The position numbers and the translations under genes were made by a program. This document shows, in pieces, positions 5,547 to 22,491 of a DNA stretch of 22,581 nt. Where the stretch lies: positions 1-22,581 of IMG/VR virus record IMGVR_UViG_3300050821_005068; one strand, written 5' to 3'. The stretch's first letter is position 1; the number at the start of each line of letters is the position of its first letter. Source of the stretch: a virus. The notes under the pieces are model-generated. The model made no database searches, had not been told where the DNA came from, and worked only from the letters and a program-made list of their open reading frames with translations.

Positions 5547-5851
5547 GTGCCGCCCTTTGTTTGTGATCGTTGTGCCGTCTTCAGCTCGAAGTGCGCGCGT
5601 GCCTTCAACACGATCGAGGCGATCTTGGCCTGCATCGCCTCAGGGAGTGAGTTGAACTCGGGCATCAGCATCAGCTCGCGCAGCCCGTTGTCCCAGAGGC
5701 ACTCGTTGAAGTTCTTGCGGTTCCAGTACTCCTGACAGAGCATGTCGATGTCCTCGACAGCTTTACCTGACCACTTGAGCCGGATGCCAAACAATCTCGC
5801 ACGTACCTGCAGCAGCTGGGAGAGCGAGTCGCCCTGTGAGAACGCGTCCAC
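5543..5851 (-). CDS. Hypothetical protein, 102 aa
   Basis: Begins at a GTG whose G is shared with the TAG stop of the primase-helicase gene (TAGTG), a typical coupled junction. The product is soluble and helical. It has two cysteines (DIDMLCQEYWNRKNFNECLWDN), a mid segment LRELMLMPEFNSLPEAMQAKI and a basic tail. Position directly behind the primase-helicase suggests a replication accessory role, but no family motif is visible. Confidence 0.7.
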   Translation of the reverse strand: MDAFSQGDSLSQLLQVRARLFGIRLKWSGKAVEDIDMLCQEYWNRKNFNECLWDNGLRELMLMPEFNSLPEAMQAKIASIVLKARAHFELKTAQRSQTKGGT

Positions 5852-8544
5852 TAGGTCAGATCCATCCGAACGAACTTCCAGCGCATGCCCTTGCGGTCCT
5901 CACCAGCGTGCACCAGCTTGAGGCCGCGACCGATACGATCGCGACACTCGCGCAGCCAGTATCCGACCTTCTTTGGGCTGTTCGGTTCGGGGCATCCGTT
6001 CTCGATGAGTGAGTTGGCTAGCTCACCATCCGGGTCAGCAAGTCCGTTGACCAGATGAACCACCTCACGAGCCCCGAACTCGCGATCAGCAAACTGTTCG
6101 TACAGCGTCTCAAATACGTTGCCCACGTGCTTCGTTTCATCGTCCGTCTCTTTCTGTGTGATCACCGGGTCCGCGAGCCCTAGCCAGATGAGCGGGTCGC
6201 GGCAGAACTTCGACCACTGCCCGAAGCTGGCCAGCGCCACGGGCGGCTTGAATATGACGTTGGCGGCATGAAATGCTTTTATGACGGTTAGTGCATCAAC
6301 CAGCATCTGCGCTCGCCGCTCCATGACGTACGGGCGCATCGTGCCCTCGGGGATCTTGAATGTGCGGCCTTTCAGGTTCTCCGTGTTCGCGTCCATCCGA
6401 ACCACAAGACTCCGTCGTGCCATATCACCCACAGGTGTAATGTTGTTGCCAGAACCCACGAGCACGACCTTGTTCGGGACACCCAGGGTCTCGCTCTCAC
6501 CCAGCTTGCGATCCTTCCACGTGGGACTTGTAATAAACGAACACAGCTCTGGCGAACGGACCTTACTCCCGTTGGGGATGTTGTCGAACCACAGACTTCG
6601 ATCACCAGCCAGGACGCTCGCGTAGAGCGATTTGCGTATTTCATCTCCGTCACTCACCCAGGTACGTATCGCGGGCTCGGAACCGTGAACGATTCGAGCG
6701 GCCATCTCCTGAAGCAGTCCTTTCCCTGTACCTGCGATCGGTGCGTCATAAAAATACATGGGGCACTGGTCAACGGCGAGACGAGACGCTTCCGCGAGAA
6801 TATGCGATAGAAAAGCGGACTCGCTGGCGGGTTCCTTCCAGGGAAACTCATCGAATACTCCACGAATCCGCTCGATAGCTTCTCGCGCACAATCCTGATC
6901 TGGGTTTGCGGGGATGTCGGGGTACTCGGTGCTAGGAACGTAAAGAACTCTTGTTCCAGAATCGTATCCGGGTTGGTCACAGATGCTCCCATCGGGCCGC
7001 ACAAACGGCGACCGTGCGATTGCGTCGAGCGGTCGGATGCGTGTCCAACCGCCCAGGTTCAAGAGTCCGTTCACGTACTTCTCGGCGATGTCGTCGTTCA
7101 CCCACTTGGTCTCTGACTTCATCCACTTCTGCACGATCGAGATCTCGCCGAAACGCTTGGCCATCCACTCCTTGGTGACCTTGATGAGCATGATCGCGTC
7201 GCTCTCGCGCCTGATCTTGGCCTCGGTGTGTGCCTGTGACCGTCGCGTGAGGTGCGGGCCCTGCACGTACACCTCGGGCACCATCAGCGCCTCCATCTGG
7301 TCGATGATGTTGCTGTAGTTGCCCTGGATCAGCTGGATGATCGGCTGGGTCGGTGCGTCGGGGACGACACGAACATCCTCGCTCGCGCCTGTTCCAGCCC
7401 CAGGGCCAGGGACAGGTTGTTCTTCGCCACCTTCAGCGCTTCCCGTCTCCACAACGGGGGTAAAGGCGGACACGTCTGCGACTCTAGCCAGTCCACGATC
7501 TCGCGCCATCTTGAAGATGTGCCGGTAGTCAGTACGAGGTGTTTGACGGAAGTGGTTGCCCCACCAGATCTCGGCCGCGCCTTCCTCGTACCCAACAGCT
7601 TTGCGGCTGAAATCTTTCCAGAGCGCTTCCGCTGGGCGCGTGGCTTGGATCGAGAGGAGCGCGTAGCCGACCTCGGACCATGTGTCATTGTCCGCTACCT
7701 TGTCCAGCAGAAAACGTAATGCTGATATGAGCTGGTCCCAGTCGGAGTCCGTGATGGTCGTTAGACAGGACCATGTGCTGGTATCTACCGAAGGTGACCC
7801 AGTCGCCGGGCTGGACGTAGGCGTCGGCGTCGTAGTTGCCTCCCCACCCTGTGCAATCTGGTTGGCCTTCTGTGATTCTGGTGTCGCATACGTCCGTGTC
7901 AACGTCGCCCAGATCTGGTTCAGCTGATCCATGCTGATCGTCGGCAGGGTTTGTGGCAGCCCTGGCTGCCACTGATAGCGCGCACCCGATGAGTGCGAGC
8001 CCGCCGCCACAAATTGCTGACCGTCGGCTAACAGCTCGATCGCTGGGCCCCTGGCCGTGTTGTCTAGCTTGATCTTTCGCTTTTTGCATGGTGTGTCCAT
8101 CCTGAAAGGGATAAGGAACTTGCGGCTAGGTCCGGTGCGACCACGATAGACCATCGGGCGCGTGTTACCCTCTGAGAATGCTGTATAGAGTAGGTCGCCG
8201 ATCTCGGGGCTCAGTGTTGGGTCGTCAACATCGACGTCCAGGGCGTACACGCCACTAATCGGGCCGGTGCGCACGCAGATGTTCAGGCGTGGGTCAGCGC
8301 TCCATATCTGCAGCTCATTGCTCAGGATCTCGCGCTTTTGCCACTCTACCAGTCCATGTGCCTCGCCCTGGCGATTGAATTGGCTTGGGATCTTGCCGAC
8401 CTTCCCCTCCAGAGCGCTCCCAGCAAGAACTCGCACATCTTCACCAGCCGGAACACAAGGTAGAAGGTTGCCACCGAGTCCCAGCACGAAATCAAAGTGA
8501 AACCACTCATCGGGCGTCGCCCCTCGTGTGTTGATATCTGTCAT
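5851..8544 (-). CDS. Bifunctional Prim-Pol primase and helicase
   Basis: An 897-residue replication protein. Residues 30-215 form a Prim-Pol domain, with acidic metal-binding residues in ALDVDVDDP at 101-109 and the later GSHSSGARYQW strand at 182-192. A Thr/Pro/Ser linker (225-260) leads to a primase C-terminal type 2 domain at 265-350 (DTWSEVGYALL...DYRHIFKMARDRG). After a second linker comes a helicase ATPase. It has Walker A APIAGTGKG at 601-609, Walker B RSLWFDNI at 649-656, a sensor-like VVLVGSGNN near 693-701 and a possible Arg finger RRSLVVR at 710-716. It would unwind DNA and lay primers at the fork. GGAG stands five bases before the ATG. It lies on the same arm as the putative origin and is coupled to the SLOG gene by ATGA. 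Confidence 0.9.
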   Translation of the reverse strand: MTDINTRGATPDEWFHFDFVLGLGGNLLPCVPAGEDVRVLAGSALEGKVGKIPSQFNRQGEAHGLVEWQKREILSNELQIWSADPRLNICVRTGPISGVYALDVDVDDPTLSPEIGDLLYTAFSEGNTRPMVYRGRTGPSRKFLIPFRMDTPCKKRKIKLDNTARGPAIELLADGQQFVAAGSHSSGARYQWQPGLPQTLPTISMDQLNQIWATLTRTYATPESQKANQIAQGGEATTTPTPTSSPATGSPSVDTSTWSCLTTITDSDWDQLISALRFLLDKVADNDTWSEVGYALLSIQATRPAEALWKDFSRKAVGYEEGAAEIWWGNHFRQTPRTDYRHIFKMARDRGLARVADVSAFTPVVETGSAEGGEEQPVPGPGAGTGASEDVRVVPDAPTQPIIQLIQGNYSNIIDQMEALMVPEVYVQGPHLTRRSQAHTEAKIRRESDAIMLIKVTKEWMAKRFGEISIVQKWMKSETKWVNDDIAEKYVNGLLNLGGWTRIRPLDAIARSPFVRPDGSICDQPGYDSGTRVLYVPSTEYPDIPANPDQDCAREAIERIRGVFDEFPWKEPASESAFLSHILAEASRLAVDQCPMYFYDAPIAGTGKGLLQEMAARIVHGSEPAIRTWVSDGDEIRKSLYASVLAGDRSLWFDNIPNGSKVRSPELCSFITSPTWKDRKLGESETLGVPNKVVLVGSGNNITPVGDMARRSLVVRMDANTENLKGRTFKIPEGTMRPYVMERRAQMLVDALTVIKAFHAANVIFKPPVALASFGQWSKFCRDPLIWLGLADPVITQKETDDETKHVGNVFETLYEQFADREFGAREVVHLVNGLADPDGELANSLIENGCPEPNSPKKVGYWLRECRDRIGRGLKLVHAGEDRKGMRWKFVRMDLT

Positions 8545-8909
8545 TTGATCTCCAATATGGGGATCCCAGCGGCACGCGCGCGGCGCACCATATCAGCTGT
8601 CCCTCGCCCACCAGGGAACGCGACGATCACATCGAGGTGTCGGTTGTCGTCCAACATCTCCTGATTGCGTATCGGGCCAGCTGCGTTGCCGTGCTTGGCC
8701 CAGTCGGCCGGGTGGCGCTTGATCAGCTTGATCTTGCGCGACTCGGCCCACTGGTCAGCGAGCCTGTCAGCTCCCGCCGCGCACCCGTGCACGAGCTTGC
8801 GCACGCCGTACAGCGTCAGCAGCTCATCGAGCGTGCGTGACAGCTTCTCGATGTCATTGAAGTCGCGCCCGCCACAGACGAGCACGGCCAATGGTTCGCG
8901 GTCTGTCAC
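8541..8909 (-). CDS. YspA-type SLOG family protein (DUF2493)
   Basis: A 122-residue Rossmann-like SLOG protein. Signatures are VLVCGGRDF at residues 9-17, VHGCAAGADRLADQWA at 40-55 and VAFPGGRGTADMVRRA at 96-111, the three conserved loops of the YspA/DUF2493 group. SLOG domains bind nucleotides or nucleotide-derived ligands and often sit in stress or defence-related loci; an enzymatic role here is not established. The GTG start was chosen because it overlaps the upstream stop as GTGA. The longer open frame to 9020 is Arg-rich shadow. It is coupled to the primase-helicase, which suggests a nucleotide-sensing or metabolic accessory role. Confidence 0.85.
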   Translation of the reverse strand: MTDREPLAVLVCGGRDFNDIEKLSRTLDELLTLYGVRKLVHGCAAGADRLADQWAESRKIKLIKRHPADWAKHGNAAGPIRNQEMLDDNRHLDVIVAFPGGRGTADMVRRARAAGIPILEIK

Positions 8910-9148
8910 AGGCCGTGCTTTGCTTTGAACTCGGCGCAGAGTCTCGCGCGCTCGGTGCGTGCGTCCTGCACCGCTGCGGTCTTGATGTATTTCTCTATGG
9001 TGGCGGGCTGGAACGTGCACCCCAGCAGGAACTGCTCGAACGCGGCGAGCACGTCCTCGATGAACGGGTCTTGCGTGTCATCGAACTCGGCGGCGATGTG
9101 CACGCCGCCCTGGATCTCATTCTTGTAAACGAACGTGTAGGTGCCCAT
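8906..9148 (-). CDS. Hypothetical protein, 80 aa
   Basis: Starts at ATG with AGAGAGGA upstream, in a TAATG junction with the preceding membrane gene; a longer frame to 9226 is shadow. The N-terminal half is beta-rich (GTYTFVYKNEIQGGVHIAAEFDD). A helical part with DPFIEDVLAAFEQFLLGCTF follows, a pattern seen in small phage proteins without known role, and then a basic C-terminal helix. Two cysteines are present. No function is recognised. Confidence 0.7.
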   Translation of the reverse strand: MGTYTFVYKNEIQGGVHIAAEFDDTQDPFIEDVLAAFEQFLLGCTFQPATIEKYIKTAAVQDARTERARLCAEFKAKHGL

Positions 9149-9297: not shown

Positions 9298-9467
9298 CGG
9301 CGTGCCTTCATGTGTGTTGCCAGACCATGGTCCCAGCGGCCCCAGGTGCAGCGTGCACAGGGGCAACCCGGGCGCACGATCTGAGGTGGGAGCTTACCGA
9401 AGCCGACCTCCCAGGGCATCACAGCGATCCAGGGGCGCTTCCCGCCGTCGATGGGTATGGTGATCAC
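9294..9467 (-). CDS. Cys-motif mini-protein, 57 aa
   Basis: A small gene starting at a GTG that overlaps the previous stop as GTGA. The much longer open frame to 9698 is Arg-rich shadow. The product begins MITIPIDGGKRPWIAVMPWEVGFGKLPP and then has CPCARC at residues 35-40 followed by a basic tail with a single His region. Three cysteines in six residues plus nearby His could hold zinc. It lies next to the Acb2/Tad1-like gene in a chain of coupled mini-genes. Function unknown. Confidence 0.6.
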   Translation of the reverse strand: MITIPIDGGKRPWIAVMPWEVGFGKLPPQIVRPGCPCARCTWGRWDHGLATHMKARR

Positions 9468-9667
9468 GTGTACGCCTTCACGGCCCACATCACGGCCTGT
9501 TCGAGGTTGGTCATCGCGAGCGCGATCATGCGCGCCTGGGCATGGTCGTGTGCACCGTTGACGTTGCGGATGAGCAGCTCCAGCCCCAGGGCGCTGTCCT
9601 TGATCTGCTCGACGTGCTCTTTCTCGGCAGCTGACAGCTCGCGGTACTGTTTGCGGAATGTGCTCAT
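9464..9667 (-). CDS. Acb2/Tad1-like hairpin protein (candidate cyclic-nucleotide sponge)
   Basis: A 67-residue all-helical protein. Its pattern YRELSAAEKEHVEQIK (residues 8-23) followed by a second helix ending TNLEQAVMWAVKAYT matches the Acb2/Tad1 hairpin family (DUF7681) as I know it. In Acb2 the residues reported as critical for ligand binding are a Tyr and a Lys 15 positions apart. Here Tyr8 and Lys23 have exactly that spacing. Acb2 proteins bind CBASS cyclic oligonucleotides and Tad1 proteins bind Thoeris signals, which blunts host defence. The start is an ATG coupled to the upstream gene by ATGA. The family assignment is from memory of motifs and the ligand is unknown. A non-immune member of the family is possible. 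Confidence 0.65.
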   Translation of the reverse strand: MSTFRKQYRELSAAEKEHVEQIKDSALGLELLIRNVNGAHDHAQARMIALAMTNLEQAVMWAVKAYT

Positions 9668-9888
9668 GTCTCGTAGCTCCCGAACTGGCCCCTGGCAAAC
9701 ATTGTTGGGTATGCGACGTTGGCCTCGTCGGCCACTGTCACGTGGTCGTGCCCCACCAGGGCCTGCCACAGCTCGGTGTACAGCTGGAACCCTGTGAGCC
9801 CGTAGGTGCCCCCGACCAGCTTGAGGGTGCCCAGCGCCTCGTCGCGTGTCAGCTCAAGTACGATCTCGATCTTGGGTGTCTTGGTCAT
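9664..9888 (-). CDS. Hypothetical protein, 74 aa
   Basis: A soluble protein with GGAG before its ATG. It begins TKTPKIEIVLELTRDEALGTLKLVGGTYGLTGFQLYTELWQAL, a beta strand leading into helices, which resembles small alpha/beta phage proteins with an LTxDEA motif. It lies immediately upstream of the Acb2/Tad1-like gene in the transcript and is coupled to it by ATGA, so the two are made together. No function is recognised. Confidence 0.7.
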   Translation of the reverse strand: MTKTPKIEIVLELTRDEALGTLKLVGGTYGLTGFQLYTELWQALVGHDHVTVADEANVAYPTMFARGQFGSYET

Positions 9889-10109
9889 TGTGCGTGCTCC
9901 GATTGGTCATGCCATGTGATTAGTGCGTCGCGGCGTATGCATGCCTTGTGGCCGCCGCTCTCCAGCACGAGCACCCCGCCCTTGTGGTCGCATTGGATCT
10001 CTTCCAGTCGTGTGTCGTGCGTGCTGCGCTCAGCGATCAGGCCCACGCTCAAGAAGATCACGAGCGCGCTCGCGCAGACGGCCCAGGTGATTGCGCTCTC
10101 TTCGCTCAT
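9885..10109 (-). CDS. Membrane protein with short soluble tail, 74 aa
   Basis: Residues 8-27 (TWAVCASALVIFLSVGLIA) form one transmembrane segment after a short acidic N-terminus. About 47 polar residues follow, including two cysteines and DHKGGVLVLESGGHKACIRR, which looks beta-rich. The N-terminus is probably outside and the tail cytoplasmic by the positive-inside rule, but charges are balanced and this is uncertain. It is coupled at both ends by four-base overlaps. Function unknown. Confidence 0.65.
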   Translation of the reverse strand: MSEESAITWAVCASALVIFLSVGLIAERSTHDTRLEEIQCDHKGGVLVLESGGHKACIRRDALITWHDQSEHAQ

Positions 10110-10354
10110 CGCGAGGGCTCATCGAAACGGACGTGCGCGACCCACGTACCGGACAGGGCGTCGAGCTTGCCGCTAATCTCTTCGAGCAGCTCGATCTTGC
10201 GGCTCTCTGGGTCCGGTGCGGATCGCTGGCGTGTGTCTGCCGCGTCCTCCAGCTCGATGATGCGGTTGATGGCCTTGCAGAGCGCGTTCTTGAGATTGAA
10301 CACGCTCTCGCTCTGGTTGTAGGCGTTGGTCAGCTCGTCCAGTAGTCGGCTCAT
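10106..10354 (-). CDS. First leftward gene: coiled-coil-like protein, 82 aa
   Basis: The start is the ATG of MSRLLDELTNAYN, with GAGGTGAG close before it; a longer frame to 10390 lacks this. The protein is almost entirely helical with regular hydrophobic spacing (FNLKNALCKAINRIIELEDAA, then IELLEEISGKLDAL), separated by a Pro/Arg-rich joint. It may form a short coiled coil. As the gene nearest the noncoding origin-like region it should be the first translated from any leftward early transcript. No family is recognised. Confidence 0.7.
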   Translation of the reverse strand: MSRLLDELTNAYNQSESVFNLKNALCKAINRIIELEDAADTRQRSAPDPESRKIELLEEISGKLDALSGTWVAHVRFDEPSR

Positions 10355-10394
10355 GCGCTCACCTCGCGATGATGTGTGGGGCTCCCTCACCCTG

Positions 10395-10424
10395 AGTGTG
10401 GCCCCGTGTTTTGCGATCCGTCAA
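10395..10424 (-). promoter_or_regulatory. Weak candidate leftward promoter
   Basis: On the minus strand TTGACG (10424-10419) is followed after 18 bases by CACACT (10400-10395). The -35 box is good and the -10 box matches the consensus at only three positions. It would give a leader of about 34 bases to the ATG at 10354. A leftward promoter must lie somewhere upstream of this arm, but this one is only a candidate. Confidence 0.3.
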
Positions 10425-10474
10425 GCCCGGCCAGGGCGTTGAGATGATGGACATCCACCCCAGCCCTCCAGGGG

Positions 10475-10540
10475 TATAAATATACGTATGTACTGTATAT
10501 ACGTACATGTGTTGTGTATAACCTGTGGATAACTATTTAC
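10475..10540. other. AT-rich block, probable DNA unwinding element
   Basis: Only 19 of these 66 bases are G or C, in sharp contrast with the GC-rich surroundings. The block contains TATACGTA twice, 17 bases apart (10481 and 10498), and the palindrome GTATATAC at 10495-10502. Such a stretch next to DnaA boxes is typical of a duplex unwinding element, and it could also contain -10 promoter elements. Confidence 0.6.
10513..10532 (-). promoter_or_regulatory. Two tandem DnaA boxes
   Basis: On the minus strand TTATCCACA (10532-10524) and TTATACACA (10521-10513) both fit the TTATNCACA consensus perfectly. They have the same orientation and their starts are 11 bases apart, one helical turn. They lie at the edge of the AT-rich block. 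This is the arrangement used by host DnaA to open origins. Confidence 0.75.
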
Positions 10541-10592
10541 CCCCGCGTAGTGCTACTTGATGTCCATCATCTCAACGGATTCGCCTCCTACA

Positions 10593-10900
10593 CCCCAGGG
10601 TTGATGTCCACATGTCCACGCCTAGGCAGCCTGCCCACTCGTACCCCAGGGCATCCGACCCCGGAGCGCCCCGCGCTAGTGTGCACTCACCAATAGCTCG
10701 CGCCTGCCTCTCGCTCCCTGGGGCTCTGACAGTCGCGCCCCCGTCTGTCAGCTCTAACCCCTTGATTTGCCAGGGCAGAAGGCATACCCCCGAACCCCAG
10801 GGCCCAGCCAGGAAACGCAAAACCCCAGGGCGAGCCGCCGTTGCGGTGACCCCGCGATCGTCGCGCCGCCGGAAAATCTCGTTACAAACTTTCCCTGGGG
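10593..10900. repeat. Six CCCCAGGG motifs in 308 bases
   Basis: CCCCAGGG is found at 10593, 10644, 10795 and 10823 on the plus strand. Its reverse complement CCCTGGGG is found at 10716 and 10893. Two of these directly or closely precede the GATGTCCA direct repeats. The motif also appears now and then inside genes elsewhere in the window, so part of the enrichment may be compositional. Confidence 0.5.
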
Positions 10901-10921
10901 AGTGGGGGTTGATGTCCACAT
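10598..10921 (+). repeat. 16-bp direct repeats carrying the GATGTCCA core
   Basis: GGGTTGATGTCCACAT occurs identically at 10598-10613 and 10906-10921. The same GATGTCCA core is in both arms of the 19-bp inverted repeat (right arm on the plus strand at 10559, left arm on the minus strand at 10455-10448), so there are four copies in 490 bases. They look like iterons or operator sites for a phage initiator or regulator. Confidence 0.7.
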
Positions 10922-11000
10922 CTCCGCACCCCACCACATAGGCCGGTCGAGACACACATACATAGGTGGAGGGGACATTGTCACATCCCCGGAGATTCCG

Positions 11001-11348
11001 ATGACCGTGTTCCCACCCGTCAAGGCCCTGGCCGATGCCCAGGCCGCGAACCTAGAGGCCACGGCCGCGATCGAGCGCGCCGCGCTCCTACCCAAGGCCC
11101 CGTTCCTCACGACCGCGCCCCACCCGCGCAAGATCCCGCTCCCCCTGGGCGGCGACGCGCTCATGTACACCCGCGAGAACCTGACCCAGCTCTACCGATG
11201 CTCGCACGGAGAGCTGGGCCGTCTGCTCGCACGGAAGATGGCACCGCTCCCGATCCGGATCGATCAGCAGATCCTCTGGTACGTTGACGAGACCCTGGCC
11301 ATGCAGGCACAGGTCCAGCGCACCATCGAGCGGTGGAGGAAGCGATGA
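11001..11348 (+). CDS. Excisionase/AlpA-like HTH DNA-binding protein
   Basis: First gene of the rightward arm; 115 residues, started at the ATG with GGAG six bases before it. The N-terminal 50 residues are Ala/Pro-rich and probably flexible. Residues 55-98 (MYTRENLTQLYRCSHGELGRLL, then APLPIRIDQQILWYVDE) follow the pattern of the small winged helix-turn-helix domains of excisionase and AlpA-like regulators: a helix, a recognition helix, then a strand with Pro, Arg, Ile and Trp. Position next to the repeats makes it a candidate to bind them, as initiator accessory or transcription regulator. This role is inferred. Confidence 0.6.
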   Translation: MTVFPPVKALADAQAANLEATAAIERAALLPKAPFLTTAPHPRKIPLPLGGDALMYTRENLTQLYRCSHGELGRLLARKMAPLPIRIDQQILWYVDETLAMQAQVQRTIERWRKR

Positions 11349-18397: not shown

Positions 18398-18471
18398 CAG
18401 GGCGAAGCGTTACGGTAGCGTACCTGCTTTGGAAGCAGGCGGCGGTTGTTCGACTCAACCCGTCCTGACCA
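18398..18471 (+). tRNA. tRNA-Pro(UGG)
   Basis: A complete cloverleaf of 74 nt. The acceptor stem CAGGGCG pairs with CGTCCTG at 18461-18467. The D arm is GCGT/GCGT with GG in the loop. The anticodon stem CCTGC/GCAGG encloses TTTGGAA, giving anticodon TGG. The T arm GGTTG/CAACC has the TTCGACT loop. The C1-G72 pair is typical of bacterial tRNA-Pro. The 3' CCA is encoded. Confidence 0.9.
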
Positions 18472-18476
18472 TCTTC

Positions 18477-18550
18477 TCACCGCTAGTTCAACGGCAGAAC
18501 TACTGGCTCTGAACCAGTCGATTGAGGTTCGAATCCTTGGCGGTGATCCA
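18477..18550 (+). tRNA. tRNA-Gln(CUG)
   Basis: A complete cloverleaf of 74 nt. The acceptor TCACCGC pairs with GCGGTGA. The D arm is GTTC/GAAC. The anticodon stem ACTGG/CCAGT encloses CTCTGAA, giving anticodon CTG. The T arm has the TTCGAAT loop, with two wobble pairs in its stem. The T1-A72 pair fits bacterial tRNA-Gln. The 3' CCA is encoded. It starts five bases after tRNA-Pro. Confidence 0.9.
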
Positions 18551-18552
18551 TT

Positions 18553-18628
18553 TGGCCTGTAGCTCAGTTGGTAGAGCGCAGAGCTGTTAACTCTGTGGTC
18601 GCACGTTCGATCCGTGCCGGGCCAGCCA
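18553..18628 (+). tRNA. tRNA-Asn(GUU)
   Basis: A complete cloverleaf of 76 nt. The acceptor TGGCCTG pairs with CGGGCCA. The D arm is GCTC/GAGC. The anticodon stem CAGAG/CTCTG encloses CTGTTAA, giving anticodon GTT. The T arm GCACG/CGTGC has the TTCGATC loop. Discriminator G and an encoded CCA follow. It starts two bases after tRNA-Gln, so the three are probably cut from one transcript. Confidence 0.95.
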
Positions 18629-19670: not shown

Positions 19671-20488
19671 GCAACAAAGGAAAAAAATCAGAGTTTGCGC
19701 GGTTGGTCACGGACGGTATCGTAGATAACCGGCCCGACATGTACAACTACGTCGCGAAACGGATCGTGGAACGGGTCGAGGCCGAGAAAATGGGCTGGAT
19801 CCACTACTACGATGGGCACTCCATGTGCGCGAACGGGCACATCGCGGCCCGGTACGTGTCGAAACCCGCGCTCTGCGTTGACTGTAAGCGCTTGGCGGAG
19901 GGGAAACCGGCCATCTATACGCCCGGCGCGTCCGTGGAGAGCCTGACAGGGTTCCCAGAGTACGTTGCGCCCATCGCGCAATCGAAATTCGCGTGGACCG
20001 ACGACAAGAAGCAGCAATTGCTCTCTGCGTGGATCAACACCGGGGGCGACATGCTCGCCGCAGCGAAGGTTGTAGGCTGCCAGCCCGAACACGTCATCGA
20101 TCTGAAGTCATCTGACGCTGAATTCCAGGCCGCGTACGAAGCCGCGCGCCTCAAGGTCGATCAGGTGCAGCTCTGGAGCATGGAATCGCGAGCCGGCGGC
20201 AACGACCGTGTCGGTTTGTCGATGGCGCAGAGCAAATTCACAGAATTTGGGGCCAAGCAGGGCTTGGCCGACCGGCCGGCCATAAACCCGGAGCAGATGC
20301 GTGCAGAACTTGCCAACATCCTATCAAGCATTAAGCGATCGATTGATGCAGAAGAAGGACTTCTTGCAACTATCCGATCTAATCGAAAACTTCCACCGTC
20401 TAACACCCCCGCAGCAGCTGCGGCAGATGACGGCCTGGAAATTGAGGCTGTACTGGCACCACCATACGACGGTAGCGACTTGGTTTAA
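19667..20488 (+). CDS. Probable terminase small subunit, 273 aa
   Basis: Starts at a GTG overlapping the previous stop as GTGA; the upstream extension to 19541 is Arg-rich shadow. Residues 54-73 (CANGH...CVDC) form a possible zinc knuckle. Residues 108-165 (AWTDDKKQQLLSAWINTGG, AAAKVVGCQPEHVIDLKSSDAEFQAAYEAA) look like the helix-turn-helix DNA-recognition region of small terminases, and a helical segment follows. The gene sits directly before the large terminase and its last 188 bases overlap that gene in another frame. It would bind the packaging site and hand DNA to TerL. The role is inferred mainly from position and the HTH-like segment. Confidence 0.65.
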   Translation: MSNKGKKSEFARLVTDGIVDNRPDMYNYVAKRIVERVEAEKMGWIHYYDGHSMCANGHIAARYVSKPALCVDCKRLAEGKPAIYTPGASVESLTGFPEYVAPIAQSKFAWTDDKKQQLLSAWINTGGDMLAAAKVVGCQPEHVIDLKSSDAEFQAAYEAARLKVDQVQLWSMESRAGGNDRVGLSMAQSKFTEFGAKQGLADRPAINPEQMRAELANILSSIKRSIDAEEGLLATIRSNRKLPPSNTPAAAAADDGLEIEAVLAPPYDGSDLV

Positions 20489-21191
20489 GAATGAAGAAAT
20501 TCGCGCTGCGTATCCTAAGCAGATGCGCCATTTCAAGCTTGGTGCACAGTACGACGAGCGTGCCCTCTTCGGCGGTAACCGAACGGGAAAGACGCACGCA
20601 GGAACTTACGAAGACACTCTACATCTCACGGGTCTCTATCCGGAATGGTGGGAAGGACGACGATTCGATCGCCCGATTGGTGCCTGGGTGGCAACCGACA
20701 CCGCGAAGAACGTACGAGACATCCTGCAGGAGAAGTTCTGCGGTGAGCCCGGCGTCCCGTCGCTGATGGGGACGGGCATGATCCCGATCGACCTGTTCGC
20801 GGGCGACCCCACATCGAAGCACGGGATCGCGAACGCGTTCGAGTCGGTGTTCGTGCACCACCACACGAACGGCGTATATGACGGGATCTCGTCATTAGCG
20901 TTCAAATCGTATGATCAAGGACGTCAGGCATTCCAGGGCACGCAGCAAGACCTGATCCACCCCGACGAGGAACCGAAGATCGAGATCTACACGGAGTGTA
21001 GTTTGAGACTTATGAGTACCGTCCCAGGGGAAAGGAACGGGATGATGACACTCACGGAGACCCCTTTGCTGGGTATCTCGCCATTGATGATTTCGTTCAT
21101 GCCAGAGCTGAACCCGGCCCACGACCTCCTGAAGCGGAAGGAGTGGAACCACGATCAGGACGACTACGACATGGTGATCGAAGGTGAATGA
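20301..21191 (+). CDS. Terminase large subunit, ATPase part
   Basis: A 296-residue N-terminal half of TerL, the packaging motor. Residues 85-98 (DERALFGGNRTGKT) hold Walker A. The Walker B-like segment LIHPDEEP is at 218-225 and the coupling motif LTETPLLGIS at 251-260. The GTG start is chosen because GGAG lies seven bases before it and the following N-terminal residues look like true TerL sequence. A start at the ATG 20346 is also possible. The frame ends at a TGA where a normal TerL would continue into the nuclease domain, which instead starts in the +1 frame. It is therefore a split or frameshifted gene. Confidence 0.85.
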   Translation: MQNLPTSYQALSDRLMQKKDFLQLSDLIENFHRLTPPQQLRQMTAWKLRLYWHHHTTVATWFKNEEIRAAYPKQMRHFKLGAQYDERALFGGNRTGKTHAGTYEDTLHLTGLYPEWWEGRRFDRPIGAWVATDTAKNVRDILQEKFCGEPGVPSLMGTGMIPIDLFAGDPTSKHGIANAFESVFVHHHTNGVYDGISSLAFKSYDQGRQAFQGTQQDLIHPDEEPKIEIYTECSLRLMSTVPGERNGMMTLTETPLLGISPLMISFMPELNPAHDLLKRKEWNHDQDDYDMVIEGE

Positions 21192-21984
21192 CCTTCCCAA
21201 CGAGAGCCGCACCGCCACGTTCTTGGACATGGACGACGTGCCGCACCTGACCGAAGCGGAAAAGCGAAAGATCTTACGAGGACTCATGCCGTACGAGATC
21301 CAGGCCCGAAAGAGCGGGATCCCAGGCCACGGCCAGGGCTCGATCTACCCGATCGCGGAGTCGCAGATGACCTGCGTCCCGTTCGAGATCCCCGGCCACT
21401 GGCCACGCAGCTACGGGATGGACCCGGGCTGGAACTGCACCGCGGTGATCTGGTTCGCGTGGGACATCGATCACCCGTACGCTGACCGCGACAACACGGT
21501 ACGGTACCCGGCCGTCGCCTACGACGAGTACTACGTGGGCCAGGAACACCCGGCCGTGCACGCGGCTGCGATCAACATGAGGGGCGGCAAGTGGTGCCCT
21601 GGCGTGATCGACCCGGCCGCTGAGAAGGCGCGCGGGCCAGACGGCGAGCGGCTGATCGAGGCGTACCGGTCCCTGGGCCTGAACGTCCACAAGGCAGACA
21701 GCACGATCAAGTCTGGACTGCTCACCTGCTGGGACGCGCTCTCCACACAGAAGCTGCGGATCTTCACCACGCTCGTGCACTGGGCGAAAGAGGTGAAGCT
21801 CTACCGGCGCGACGAGAAGGGCGAGATCATCAAGACCAACGACCACCTGATGGACGCGATGCGCTACAACGTGATGAGCGGGTTCGCTGTGGCCAAGGTG
21901 CCACCGGACGAGAGCGGCACCGGCACACCCTGGTACGCGTGGACGCCAGAGATGGCAACACCCGGTGGGGTATGGAGCGGCTGA
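21184..21984 (+). CDS. Terminase large subunit, nuclease part
   Basis: A 266-residue frame that starts at a GTG overlapping the ATPase stop by eight bases. Residues 17-60 (MDDVPHLTEAEKRK, ARKSGIPGHGQGSIYPI) are the usual TerL linker into the nuclease. The RNase H-like nuclease has Asp80 in YGMDPGW, Asp143 in GVIDPAAEK and Asp220/Asp224 in NDHLMDAMRY as probable metal-binding residues. This part cuts concatemer DNA at the start and end of packaging. An in-frame ATG at 21229 could also begin a separate protein. No ribosome-binding site is seen, so coupling or frameshifting must feed it. Confidence 0.85.
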   Translation: MNDLPNESRTATFLDMDDVPHLTEAEKRKILRGLMPYEIQARKSGIPGHGQGSIYPIAESQMTCVPFEIPGHWPRSYGMDPGWNCTAVIWFAWDIDHPYADRDNTVRYPAVAYDEYYVGQEHPAVHAAAINMRGGKWCPGVIDPAAEKARGPDGERLIEAYRSLGLNVHKADSTIKSGLLTCWDALSTQKLRIFTTLVHWAKEVKLYRRDEKGEIIKTNDHLMDAMRYNVMSGFAVAKVPPDESGTGTPWYAWTPEMATPGGVWSG

Positions 21985-22163
21985 TCTCCGTTGCGGGGAT
22001 CGAGTACGAGTTTCGACGGTATGGTCACGTGCTGTTCGTGGAAACGAACGGCTCGCTAGTCTCCTGGGGCAGAGCCTCCACGCGACGACTGCTGTGGCCG
22101 CTACTGACAGGCAGGGAAGATGAAATGAAGCGATTCCTTATGGCGAGAGCACTACGTGAGTAA
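21972..22163 (+). CDS. Hypothetical protein, 63 aa
   Basis: The start is the ATG of MERLISVAGIEYEF with GGTGGGG close upstream, overlapping the terminase nuclease gene by 13 bases. The product begins with beta strands (RLISVAGIEYEFRRYGHVLFVETNG) and ends in a basic helix (REDEMKRFLMARALRE). It has no cysteine and no membrane segment. It is followed by the HNH gene with an eight-base overlap. No family is recognised. Confidence 0.65.
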   Translation: MERLISVAGIEYEFRRYGHVLFVETNGSLVSWGRASTRRLLWPLLTGREDEMKRFLMARALRE

Positions 22164-22491
22164 TCAACGGAAAACGGAATCTCGCGAAGCGTACTTGGCG
22201 CGGCAGCGCAAGAATGCTAATGCACACTACCACAAGCACAAAGAACGTTTGCGTATCGTGAATAGAGAAAAGGCCAGGGCAAAACTGCCCGCGCCGTCCC
22301 GACCATGTCCTGATCTATGTGAATGCTGCGGTCGGCCGCCTAACGGCAGAGGCTCGCTACACCTAGATCACGATCACATTACCGGTGCATTCCGGGGATG
22401 GTTATGTGGCAGCTGCAATCTAGGTATCGGGCTGCTAGGAGATTCTATGGCTGGCACTCAACGCGCCACCGCATACTTACAGAGAGGGTGA
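22156..22491 (+). CDS. HNH endonuclease of the endonuclease VII family
   Basis: A 111-residue protein with a basic helical N-terminus. It then has CECCGR (first zinc knuckle), LHLDHDHITGAFRGWLC with the catalytic His-Asp-His core, and CGSCNLGIGLLGD (second knuckle). This order is the recombination endonuclease VII signature. Members cut branched DNA or act as free-standing homing nucleases in phages. It lies just after the terminase, where an HNH protein is also often needed for packaging. The GTG start overlaps the previous gene by eight bases. Confidence 0.9.
   Translation: MSNQRKTESREAYLARQRKNANAHYHKHKERLRIVNREKARAKLPAPSRPCPDLCECCGRPPNGRGSLHLDHDHITGAFRGWLCGSCNLGIGLLGDSMAGTQRATAYLQRG

What the first reader, a model, noticed from the sequence alone, without database searches (positions are those of the whole stretch)
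10437..10921. Phage origin with 19-bp inverted repeat, twin DnaA boxes, AT-rich block and GATGTCCA iterons
A perfect 19-bp inverted repeat with a 103-base centre encloses an AT-rich block and two consensus DnaA boxes one helical turn apart. The arms share GATGTCCA with two further 16-bp direct repeats. The region is the only large gap and separates the two arms. The combination suggests an origin opened by host DnaA plus a phage protein binding the GATGTCCA sites.
Basis: seen in the sequence. Interest (0 to 1): 0.8.

Follow-up and report, generated by a model that had tools for sequence, protein, structure and literature searches.

The report
Swappable stem-loop origin in soil phages
A short DNA stretch that can fold into a large hairpin, probably where this uncultured phage starts copying its genome, keeps its shape across related phages while its letters, and apparently the gene beside it, are exchanged as a unit; only some relatives also carry landing sites for the host's own replication starter, DnaA.

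Summary
In detail: a perfect 19-bp inverted repeat (10437-10455/10559-10577), two DnaA boxes 11 bp apart, an AT-rich block and GATGTCCA repeats lie in the 646-bp divergent gap.

Seventeen relatives share the locus beside the same right-arm gene; 16 have a clear stem-loop. Arms stay paired while their sequence varies. Two phages 99% identical alongside differ in the stem-loop; another pair, 94-95% identical on both sides, has exchanged the stem-loop plus the neighbouring left gene, and left-gene type predicts arm sequence (Mantel p=0.0001). These phages encode a PrimPol/PriCT-2 replication protein whose model best matches pRN1 ORF904; pRN1 needs a ~100-bp stem-loop of variable sequence to replicate.

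Best explanation: a pRN1/BPP-1-type stem-loop origin. The DnaA boxes are real (5 of 7 boxes in 661 kb lie inside stem-loops) but occur in only 3 of 18 loci, so DnaA is probably accessory, not the general initiator. The suggested binder (11001-11348) has a near-invariant DNA-binding region and is an unlikely reader of such variable repeats. No origin has been mapped. New variant of a known kind.

The parts
10437..10455 (.). Left arm of the stem-loop (perfect 19-bp inverted repeat)
10456..10558 (.). Loop of the stem-loop, 103 nt, AT-rich in its centre; candidate melting region
10475..10509 (.). AT-rich block TATAAATATACGTATGTACTGTATATACGTACATG
10513..10521 (-). DnaA box TTATACACA
10524..10532 (-). 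DnaA box TTATCCACA
10559..10577 (.). Right arm of the stem-loop
10598..10622 (+). Distal repeat GGGTTGATGTCCACATGTCCACGCC (shares GATGTCCA with the arms)
   Evidence: same repeat family in L112
10906..10930 (+). Second distal repeat GGGTTGATGTCCACATCTCCGCACC
10593..10900 (.). Six CCCCAGGG sites (10593, 10644, 10716-, 10795, 10823, 10893-); several relatives have 20-22-bp phased CCGTCGGG/CCGCTGG arrays in the matching place
10727..10750 (.). Imperfect palindrome TGACAGTCG-CGCCCC-CGTCTGTCA; symmetry kept in most relatives, sequence differs between lineages
10816..10886 (+). Conserved block AAAACCCC..ATCGTCGCGCCG..GAAAA..CGTT, function unknown
10106..10354 (-). First gene of the left arm (82 aa, no known family); in relatives this slot is exchanged together with the stem-loop
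5851..8544 (-). Replication protein: PrimPol + PriCT-2 + P-loop ATPase + possible C-terminal winged helix; presumed initiator
11001..11348 (+). First gene of the right arm; predicted small winged-helix-like protein, nearly invariant in relatives

Best explanation
The region is the replication origin of the phage, of the stem-loop kind proposed for PrimPol-type replication proteins. Two inverted arms (10437-10455 and 10559-10577) flank an AT-rich loop. The phage PrimPol/PriCT-2/ATPase protein (5851-8544), perhaps helped by a cassette-specific protein encoded next to the stem-loop, would assemble at the arms, melt the loop and prime synthesis toward both genome arms. In this phage, in G010 and in G019, host DnaA would bind boxes inside the loop and assist opening. 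Shown by sequence: conserved place, conserved stem-loop with variable sequence, joint exchange with the left gene, location of DnaA boxes inside loops, and the primase type. Inferred: origin activity, which protein binds what, bidirectional firing, and DnaA use.
For: Eighteen loci lie upstream of the same right-arm gene. Longest-inverted-repeat test: 7 of 13 regions exceed all 200 shuffles. In 432 kb only 12 perfect repeats of 12 bp or more with 30-150-nt loops exist, and 7 are at this locus. ssDNA folds have z of -2.9 or lower in 14 of 18 loci. Sequence differs while pairing holds: G001 and G002 are 99% identical from +126 on but 44-58% in the stem-loop. PrimPol relatives of 54-61% identity were found in 7 of 13 related records searched, the others being too short on that side or cut, and in the MAG relative. 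The primase model's best solved-structure match is pRN1 ORF904 (1rni, probability 1.00, E 6.5e-3). pRN1 needs a ~100-bp stem-loop (21-nt stem, 58-nt loop at 75 C), of low sequence conservation between conserved flanks, and restoring stem symmetry restored replication (PMC4234260). BPP-1, a close relative of the phage named in that paper, has a 22-bp inverted repeat with a 60-nt loop near its PrimPol gene. DnaA boxes: 7 in 661 kb, 5 of them inside stem-loops totalling 2.2 kb.
Against: No replication mapping exists and no relative has been cultured. In pRN1 the stem-loop lies 3' of the replication gene; here it lies about 1.9 kb upstream of the PrimPol start, at the head of its operon. Distal direct repeats are present, whereas pRN1 lacks iterons. 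The full-length primase model is poor (pLDDT 43.5), so helicase class and winged helix are unproven. Stem-loop limits were chosen by eye, so the fold z-scores are partly circular. The stem is short in G001, G003 and G014 and not convincing in G016. GC and AT skew follow gene orientation, so skew minima are not independent evidence.
Confidence: 0.6

Rival explanations
1. A classical iteron origin (P4/PICI type): the distal direct repeats and arms are binding sites flanking an AT-rich melting region. The DNA never extrudes a hairpin; the inverted arrangement only reflects two oppositely oriented helicases.
For: PICI origins have two iteron sets flanking an AT-rich region (PMC6092414). Arms resemble the distal repeats in several loci (ATCRTCACC clusters). 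P4 alpha binds its origin repeats through a winged helix (stated in PMC4234260).
Against: Arms pair perfectly over up to 35 bp, longer than short binding sites need, and unrelated arm sequences pair equally well. The primase is of the PrimPol type, not the Toprim type of P4.
Confidence: 0.17
2. The region is mainly a divergent operator/promoter switch, an immunity-like module. The left gene encodes a regulator that binds the two arms and loops the DNA to control early and late operons, and the cassette swap is heteroimmunity as in lambdoid phages.
For: It lies between divergent arms; left-gene type and arm sequence co-vary; the cassette is exchanged with the adjacent gene; it contains an imperfect palindrome and conserved blocks; a sigma-like protein is encoded in the left arm.
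Against: Arms are long asymmetric sequences about 100 bp apart, not short palindromic operators. DnaA boxes inside loops are hard to explain by transcription control alone, though DnaA can act as a transcription factor. No repressor domain or integrase was recognised, and the sigma-70 promoter scan found nothing.
Confidence: 0.15
3. DnaA-driven origin: host DnaA opens the AT-rich block and a phage protein binding GATGTCCA helps.
For: Two DnaA boxes matching TTATNCACA, 11 bp apart, next to AT-rich DNA; boxes in three phages all sit in the loop.
Against: No TTATNCACA in 15 of 18 homologous loci; GATGTCCA-type repeats are shared only with L112; the 11001-11348 protein is nearly invariant while repeats vary.
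Confidence: 0.06
4. The stem-loop is a double-strand origin for rolling-circle replication.
For: Rolling-circle origins often lie in stem-loops, and this was proposed by others for pRN1 (discussed in PMC4234260).
Against: No HUH-type nickase was recognised among the conserved left-arm genes scanned; the phages carry a family A DNA polymerase, SSB and helicase.
Confidence: 0.02

Closest known systems
pRN1-family plasmid origin (Sulfolobus) with ORF904
   Same: PrimPol-type replication protein; roughly 100-bp stem-loop; stem sequence poorly conserved between conserved flanks but structure kept (PMC4234260).
   Different: Here the stem-loop lies in the divergent gap at the head of the replication operon, has distal direct repeats and a second palindrome, carries DnaA boxes in 3 of 18 loci, and is exchanged with an adjacent gene.
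Bordetella phage BPP-1/BIP-1 proposed stem-loop origin
   Same: PrimPol + PriCT-2 protein; 22-bp inverted repeat with 60-nt loop.
   Different: BPP-1 arms are clean 9-bp tandem repeats and lie 3' of the primase gene; its helicase part matches D5_N, which was not detected here; sequence similarity is weak and confined to the PrimPol/PriCT region.
P4 crr/ori and PICI origins
   Same: Repeat clusters flanking an AT-rich region next to a primase-helicase.
   Different: Toprim-type primase in P4; no long paired arms described in the papers read.
NrS-1 phage PrimPol
   Same: AEP primase-polymerase of a phage; recognises GTGA/GTGG (PMC8718748), words found in most arms or repeats here.
   Different: No stem-loop origin described in the paper read; such short words occur often by chance.
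PLE origins of Vibrio cholerae and the origin-directed nuclease Odn
   Same: Replication modules exchanged between otherwise similar elements; origin restructuring escapes an origin-directed nuclease (PMC8263062).
   Different: RepA_N initiator and semi-palindromic iterons; no selecting nuclease is known here.

Membership tests
pRN1/BPP-1-type stem-loop origin | Replication protein with PrimPol domain | tested here: met
   PF09250 E 3.1e-11; Foldseek best match 1rni
pRN1/BPP-1-type stem-loop origin | PriCT-type domain after PrimPol | tested here: met
   PriCT_2 in all 7 members scanned
pRN1/BPP-1-type stem-loop origin | SF3 (or D5-like) helicase domain | tested here: inconclusive
   Walker A GTGKS and FDN/SGNN motifs visible in A4 but no Pfam helicase match
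pRN1/BPP-1-type stem-loop origin | C-terminal winged-helix domain | tested here: inconclusive
   Predicted helices then beta hairpin at 801-893, block pLDDT 47-65
pRN1/BPP-1-type stem-loop origin | About 100-bp stem-loop, structure conserved, sequence variable, flanks conserved | tested here: met
   weak or absent in G016
pRN1/BPP-1-type stem-loop origin | Stem-loop located 3' of the replication gene | tested here: not met
   It lies at the head of the left operon, upstream of PrimPol
pRN1/BPP-1-type stem-loop origin | Stem integrity required for replication | not testable with these tools
   needs mutants
DnaA-dependent origin | DnaA boxes next to AT-rich DNA | tested here: met
   met in the window; absent in 15 of 18 loci
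DnaA-dependent origin | Initiation requires DnaA | not testable with these tools
   needs a dnaA-ts strain or in vitro opening
Classical iteron origin (P4/PICI) | Regular direct repeats of about 9-22 bp | tested here: inconclusive
   Two to four short distal repeats and triplet periodicity (3, 6, 9) rather than a clean 9-bp period; phased 20-22-bp arrays only in some relatives

The most novel reading that the evidence does not exclude
The origin of this phage clade is a swappable 'origin type' cassette: a hypervariable stem-loop plus a matching small DNA-binding protein gene beside it, exchanged as a unit between nearly identical phages, possibly under selection from superinfecting relatives, satellites or origin-directed nucleases. 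Some cassettes have recruited host DnaA by placing boxes inside the loop.
Probability: 0.35. Interest if true: 0.75.

Novelty: new variant of a known kind. Interest (0 to 1): 0.55.

Why it matters
Stem-loop origins for PrimPol replicons were proposed in 2014 from one plasmid family and one phage group. Eighteen natural variants with largely unrelated stems give a ready comparative test that pairing, not sequence, is selected. Exchange of the stem-loop with its neighbour gene between phages that are otherwise 94-95% identical suggests that origins can be immunity-like, diversifying modules, and DnaA boxes confined to loops show one way a phage origin may be coupled to host replication control.

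Tried and rejected
Exact 19-mer search of viral contigs: no hit. Near-DNA search of phage and plasmid collections: no match; a distant search gave only 22-nt matches to the DnaA-box pair in unrelated phages. Primase single-sequence scan of viral contigs found no relative; relatives came through the terminase and then the 11001-11348 protein. GC/AT skew: minima at or near the locus in the long contigs, but confounded by gene orientation, so not used as proof. Rfam: only tRNAs. Sigma-70 promoter and terminator scan: nothing. PDB sequence search of the primase, alone and as a profile: no meaningful match. Fold search of the 11001-11348 model: no match at E 0.001 or better. 9-bp iteron periodicity in arms: not clean, triplet periodicity instead. 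Invertible segment, protelomerase site and phage attachment site were considered: arms are too far apart for a telomere palindrome and no integrase was recognised. Host: one relative lies in a Solirubrobacterales bog MAG contig, but none of 200 other genomes of that order has the primase, so the host stays open; that MAG holds only 5 TTATNCACA sites in 3.9 Mb.

Full report
Observation. The sequence at 10437-10921 is as described. The 19-bp inverted repeat is perfect with a 103-nt centre; 0 of 200 shuffles of the intergenic region reach it. The DnaA boxes TTATACACA and TTATCCACA lie 11 bp apart on the minus strand, and GATGTCCA occurs four times here.

Setting. The window is a 22.6-kb linear IMG/VR fragment. 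The left arm (minus strand) carries a PrimPol/PriCT-2 replication protein, a sigma-like protein, an Acb2/Tad1-hairpin protein and a YspA-SLOG protein. The right arm carries a conserved operon with the terminase. Larger relatives add portal, major head protein and head closure on the right, and family A DNA polymerase, SNF2-type helicase, exonuclease, Enc34-type SSB and a resolvase on the left. The gap 10355-11000 separates the two arms.

Relatives. The terminase and then the right-arm protein 11001-11348 led to 17 relatives with enough upstream sequence, 16 from IMG/VR and one in a contig of a Solirubrobacterales bog MAG. The protein has no match in the named phage collection. PrimPol relatives of 54-61% identity were found in seven of the records and in the MAG; the records without a hit end before that gene or were not long enough on that side.

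The stem-loop. Sixteen of 17 relatives have a clear inverted repeat in the same position (G016 is doubtful), with perfect arms of about 9-35 bp and loops mostly of 55-106 nt. Across 432 kb only 12 perfect repeats of at least 12 bp with loops of 30-150 nt occur, and 7 are at this locus. ssDNA folding gives z from -2.9 to -13 in 14 of 18 loci, -5.8 for the window; limits were set by eye, so the unbiased tests are. The arm sequence is not conserved: the window's arms are shared only with L112. G001 and G002 are 99% identical for 2.3 kb on the right but 44-58% in the stem-loop, and both still pair; G002 ends just left of it, so for this pair the left flank is unknown.

Exchange as a cassette. G021 and G022 are 94-95% identical on both sides, but the stretch from about -520 to +176 relative to the stem-loop start, which holds the stem-loop and the first left gene, does not align. 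The left genes fall into types: type 1 (G010, G011, MAG) with arms containing GTGATACT, type 2 (G012, G013, G017, G022) with GATGAT-rich arms, type 3 (G015, G021) with TGACGATG..TATGATA arms. Arm similarity follows left-protein similarity (12 loci, Mantel r 0.51, p 0.0001; same after removing relatedness of the right-arm gene; label permutation on 9 typed loci p 0.001). The types were noticed before the test, and physical linkage alone could produce this pattern, so it shows a joint cassette, not binding.

DnaA boxes. TTATNCACA occurs 7 times in 661 kb of phage contigs, and 5 of these lie inside stem-loops totalling 2.2 kb: two in the window, two (inverted, 3 bp apart) in G010, one in G019. 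Shuffled stem-loops give 0.13 on average and never 5 in 2000. The boxes are therefore not chance, but most relatives lack them.

Which protein reads the repeats? The right-arm protein's DNA-binding region is almost invariant, so it is an unlikely reader of variable sites. In PrimPol the C-terminal region falls to 46% identity between window and the main group against 79% within that group (ratio 0.58), while the PrimPol, PriCT and ATPase parts have ratios of 0.81-0.90. The C-terminus is predicted as helices followed by a beta hairpin, compatible with a winged helix, at low confidence.

Comparison with the known. The best structural match of the primase model is the PrimPol domain of pRN1 ORF904. 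For pRN1 a 100-bp stem-loop is required for replication, its sequence varies between plasmids while flanks are conserved, and restoring stem symmetry restored replication; the authors proposed the same for phage BIP-1 and its near-identical relatives (PMC4234260). In BPP-1 I find a 22-bp perfect repeat with a 60-nt loop near the PrimPol gene. PICI origins have two repeat sets flanking an AT-rich region (PMC6092414). The present locus works like the pRN1 type but differs in position, in its distal repeats, in the cassette exchange and in the DnaA boxes; SF3 helicase and winged helix are not proven, so it is filed as a new variant, not a plain member.

Mechanism. Most likely the PrimPol protein, perhaps with a cassette-specific partner, assembles on the two inverted arms, melts the AT-rich loop and primes outward; DnaA assists in three phages. 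The main alternatives are an iteron origin without hairpin extrusion and a divergent regulatory switch exchanged as immunity modules are. None of the evidence is experimental.

Noticed in passing
window 9464-9769 (-): Acb2/Tad1 hairpin-domain protein, a likely sponge against cyclic-nucleotide defence signals; a homologue sits in the same place in G001.
   Followed up: no
window 8541-9020 (-): YspA, cpYpsA-related SLOG family protein upstream of the PrimPol gene.
   Followed up: no
window 20301-21984 and 22156-22491: Terminase large subunit lies in two adjacent reading frames (N-terminal and C-terminal matches), followed by an endonuclease VII-type HNH gene; the same split holds in relatives.
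   Followed up: partly
window 18398-18628: Three tRNA genes (Pro, Gln, Asn) in the right arm.
   Followed up: no
L124 9408-9500, L118 756-805, L122 7245-7296, L123 matching region: Tandem CCGTCGGG or CCGCTGG arrays with 20-22-bp period directly right of the stem-loop; the window has irregular CCCCAGGG sites instead.
   Followed up: partly
L161 2370-2820: Repeated CRP-like palindromes such as AGTGTGATGTAGTTCACACT in the place of the single palindrome of other relatives.
   Followed up: no
L114, L119, L153, L170: Extra genes (some endonuclease VII/HNH-like by eye) are inserted between the distal repeats and the right-arm gene.
   Followed up: no
L153 (PLES01000005.1): A relative lies in a contig binned into a Solirubrobacterales bog MAG; possible host hint or binning error.
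   Followed up: partly
L143 2849-3376 (-): A small serine resolvase gene is conserved in the left arm of four relatives; its target could be the imperfect palindrome, untested.
   Followed up: no
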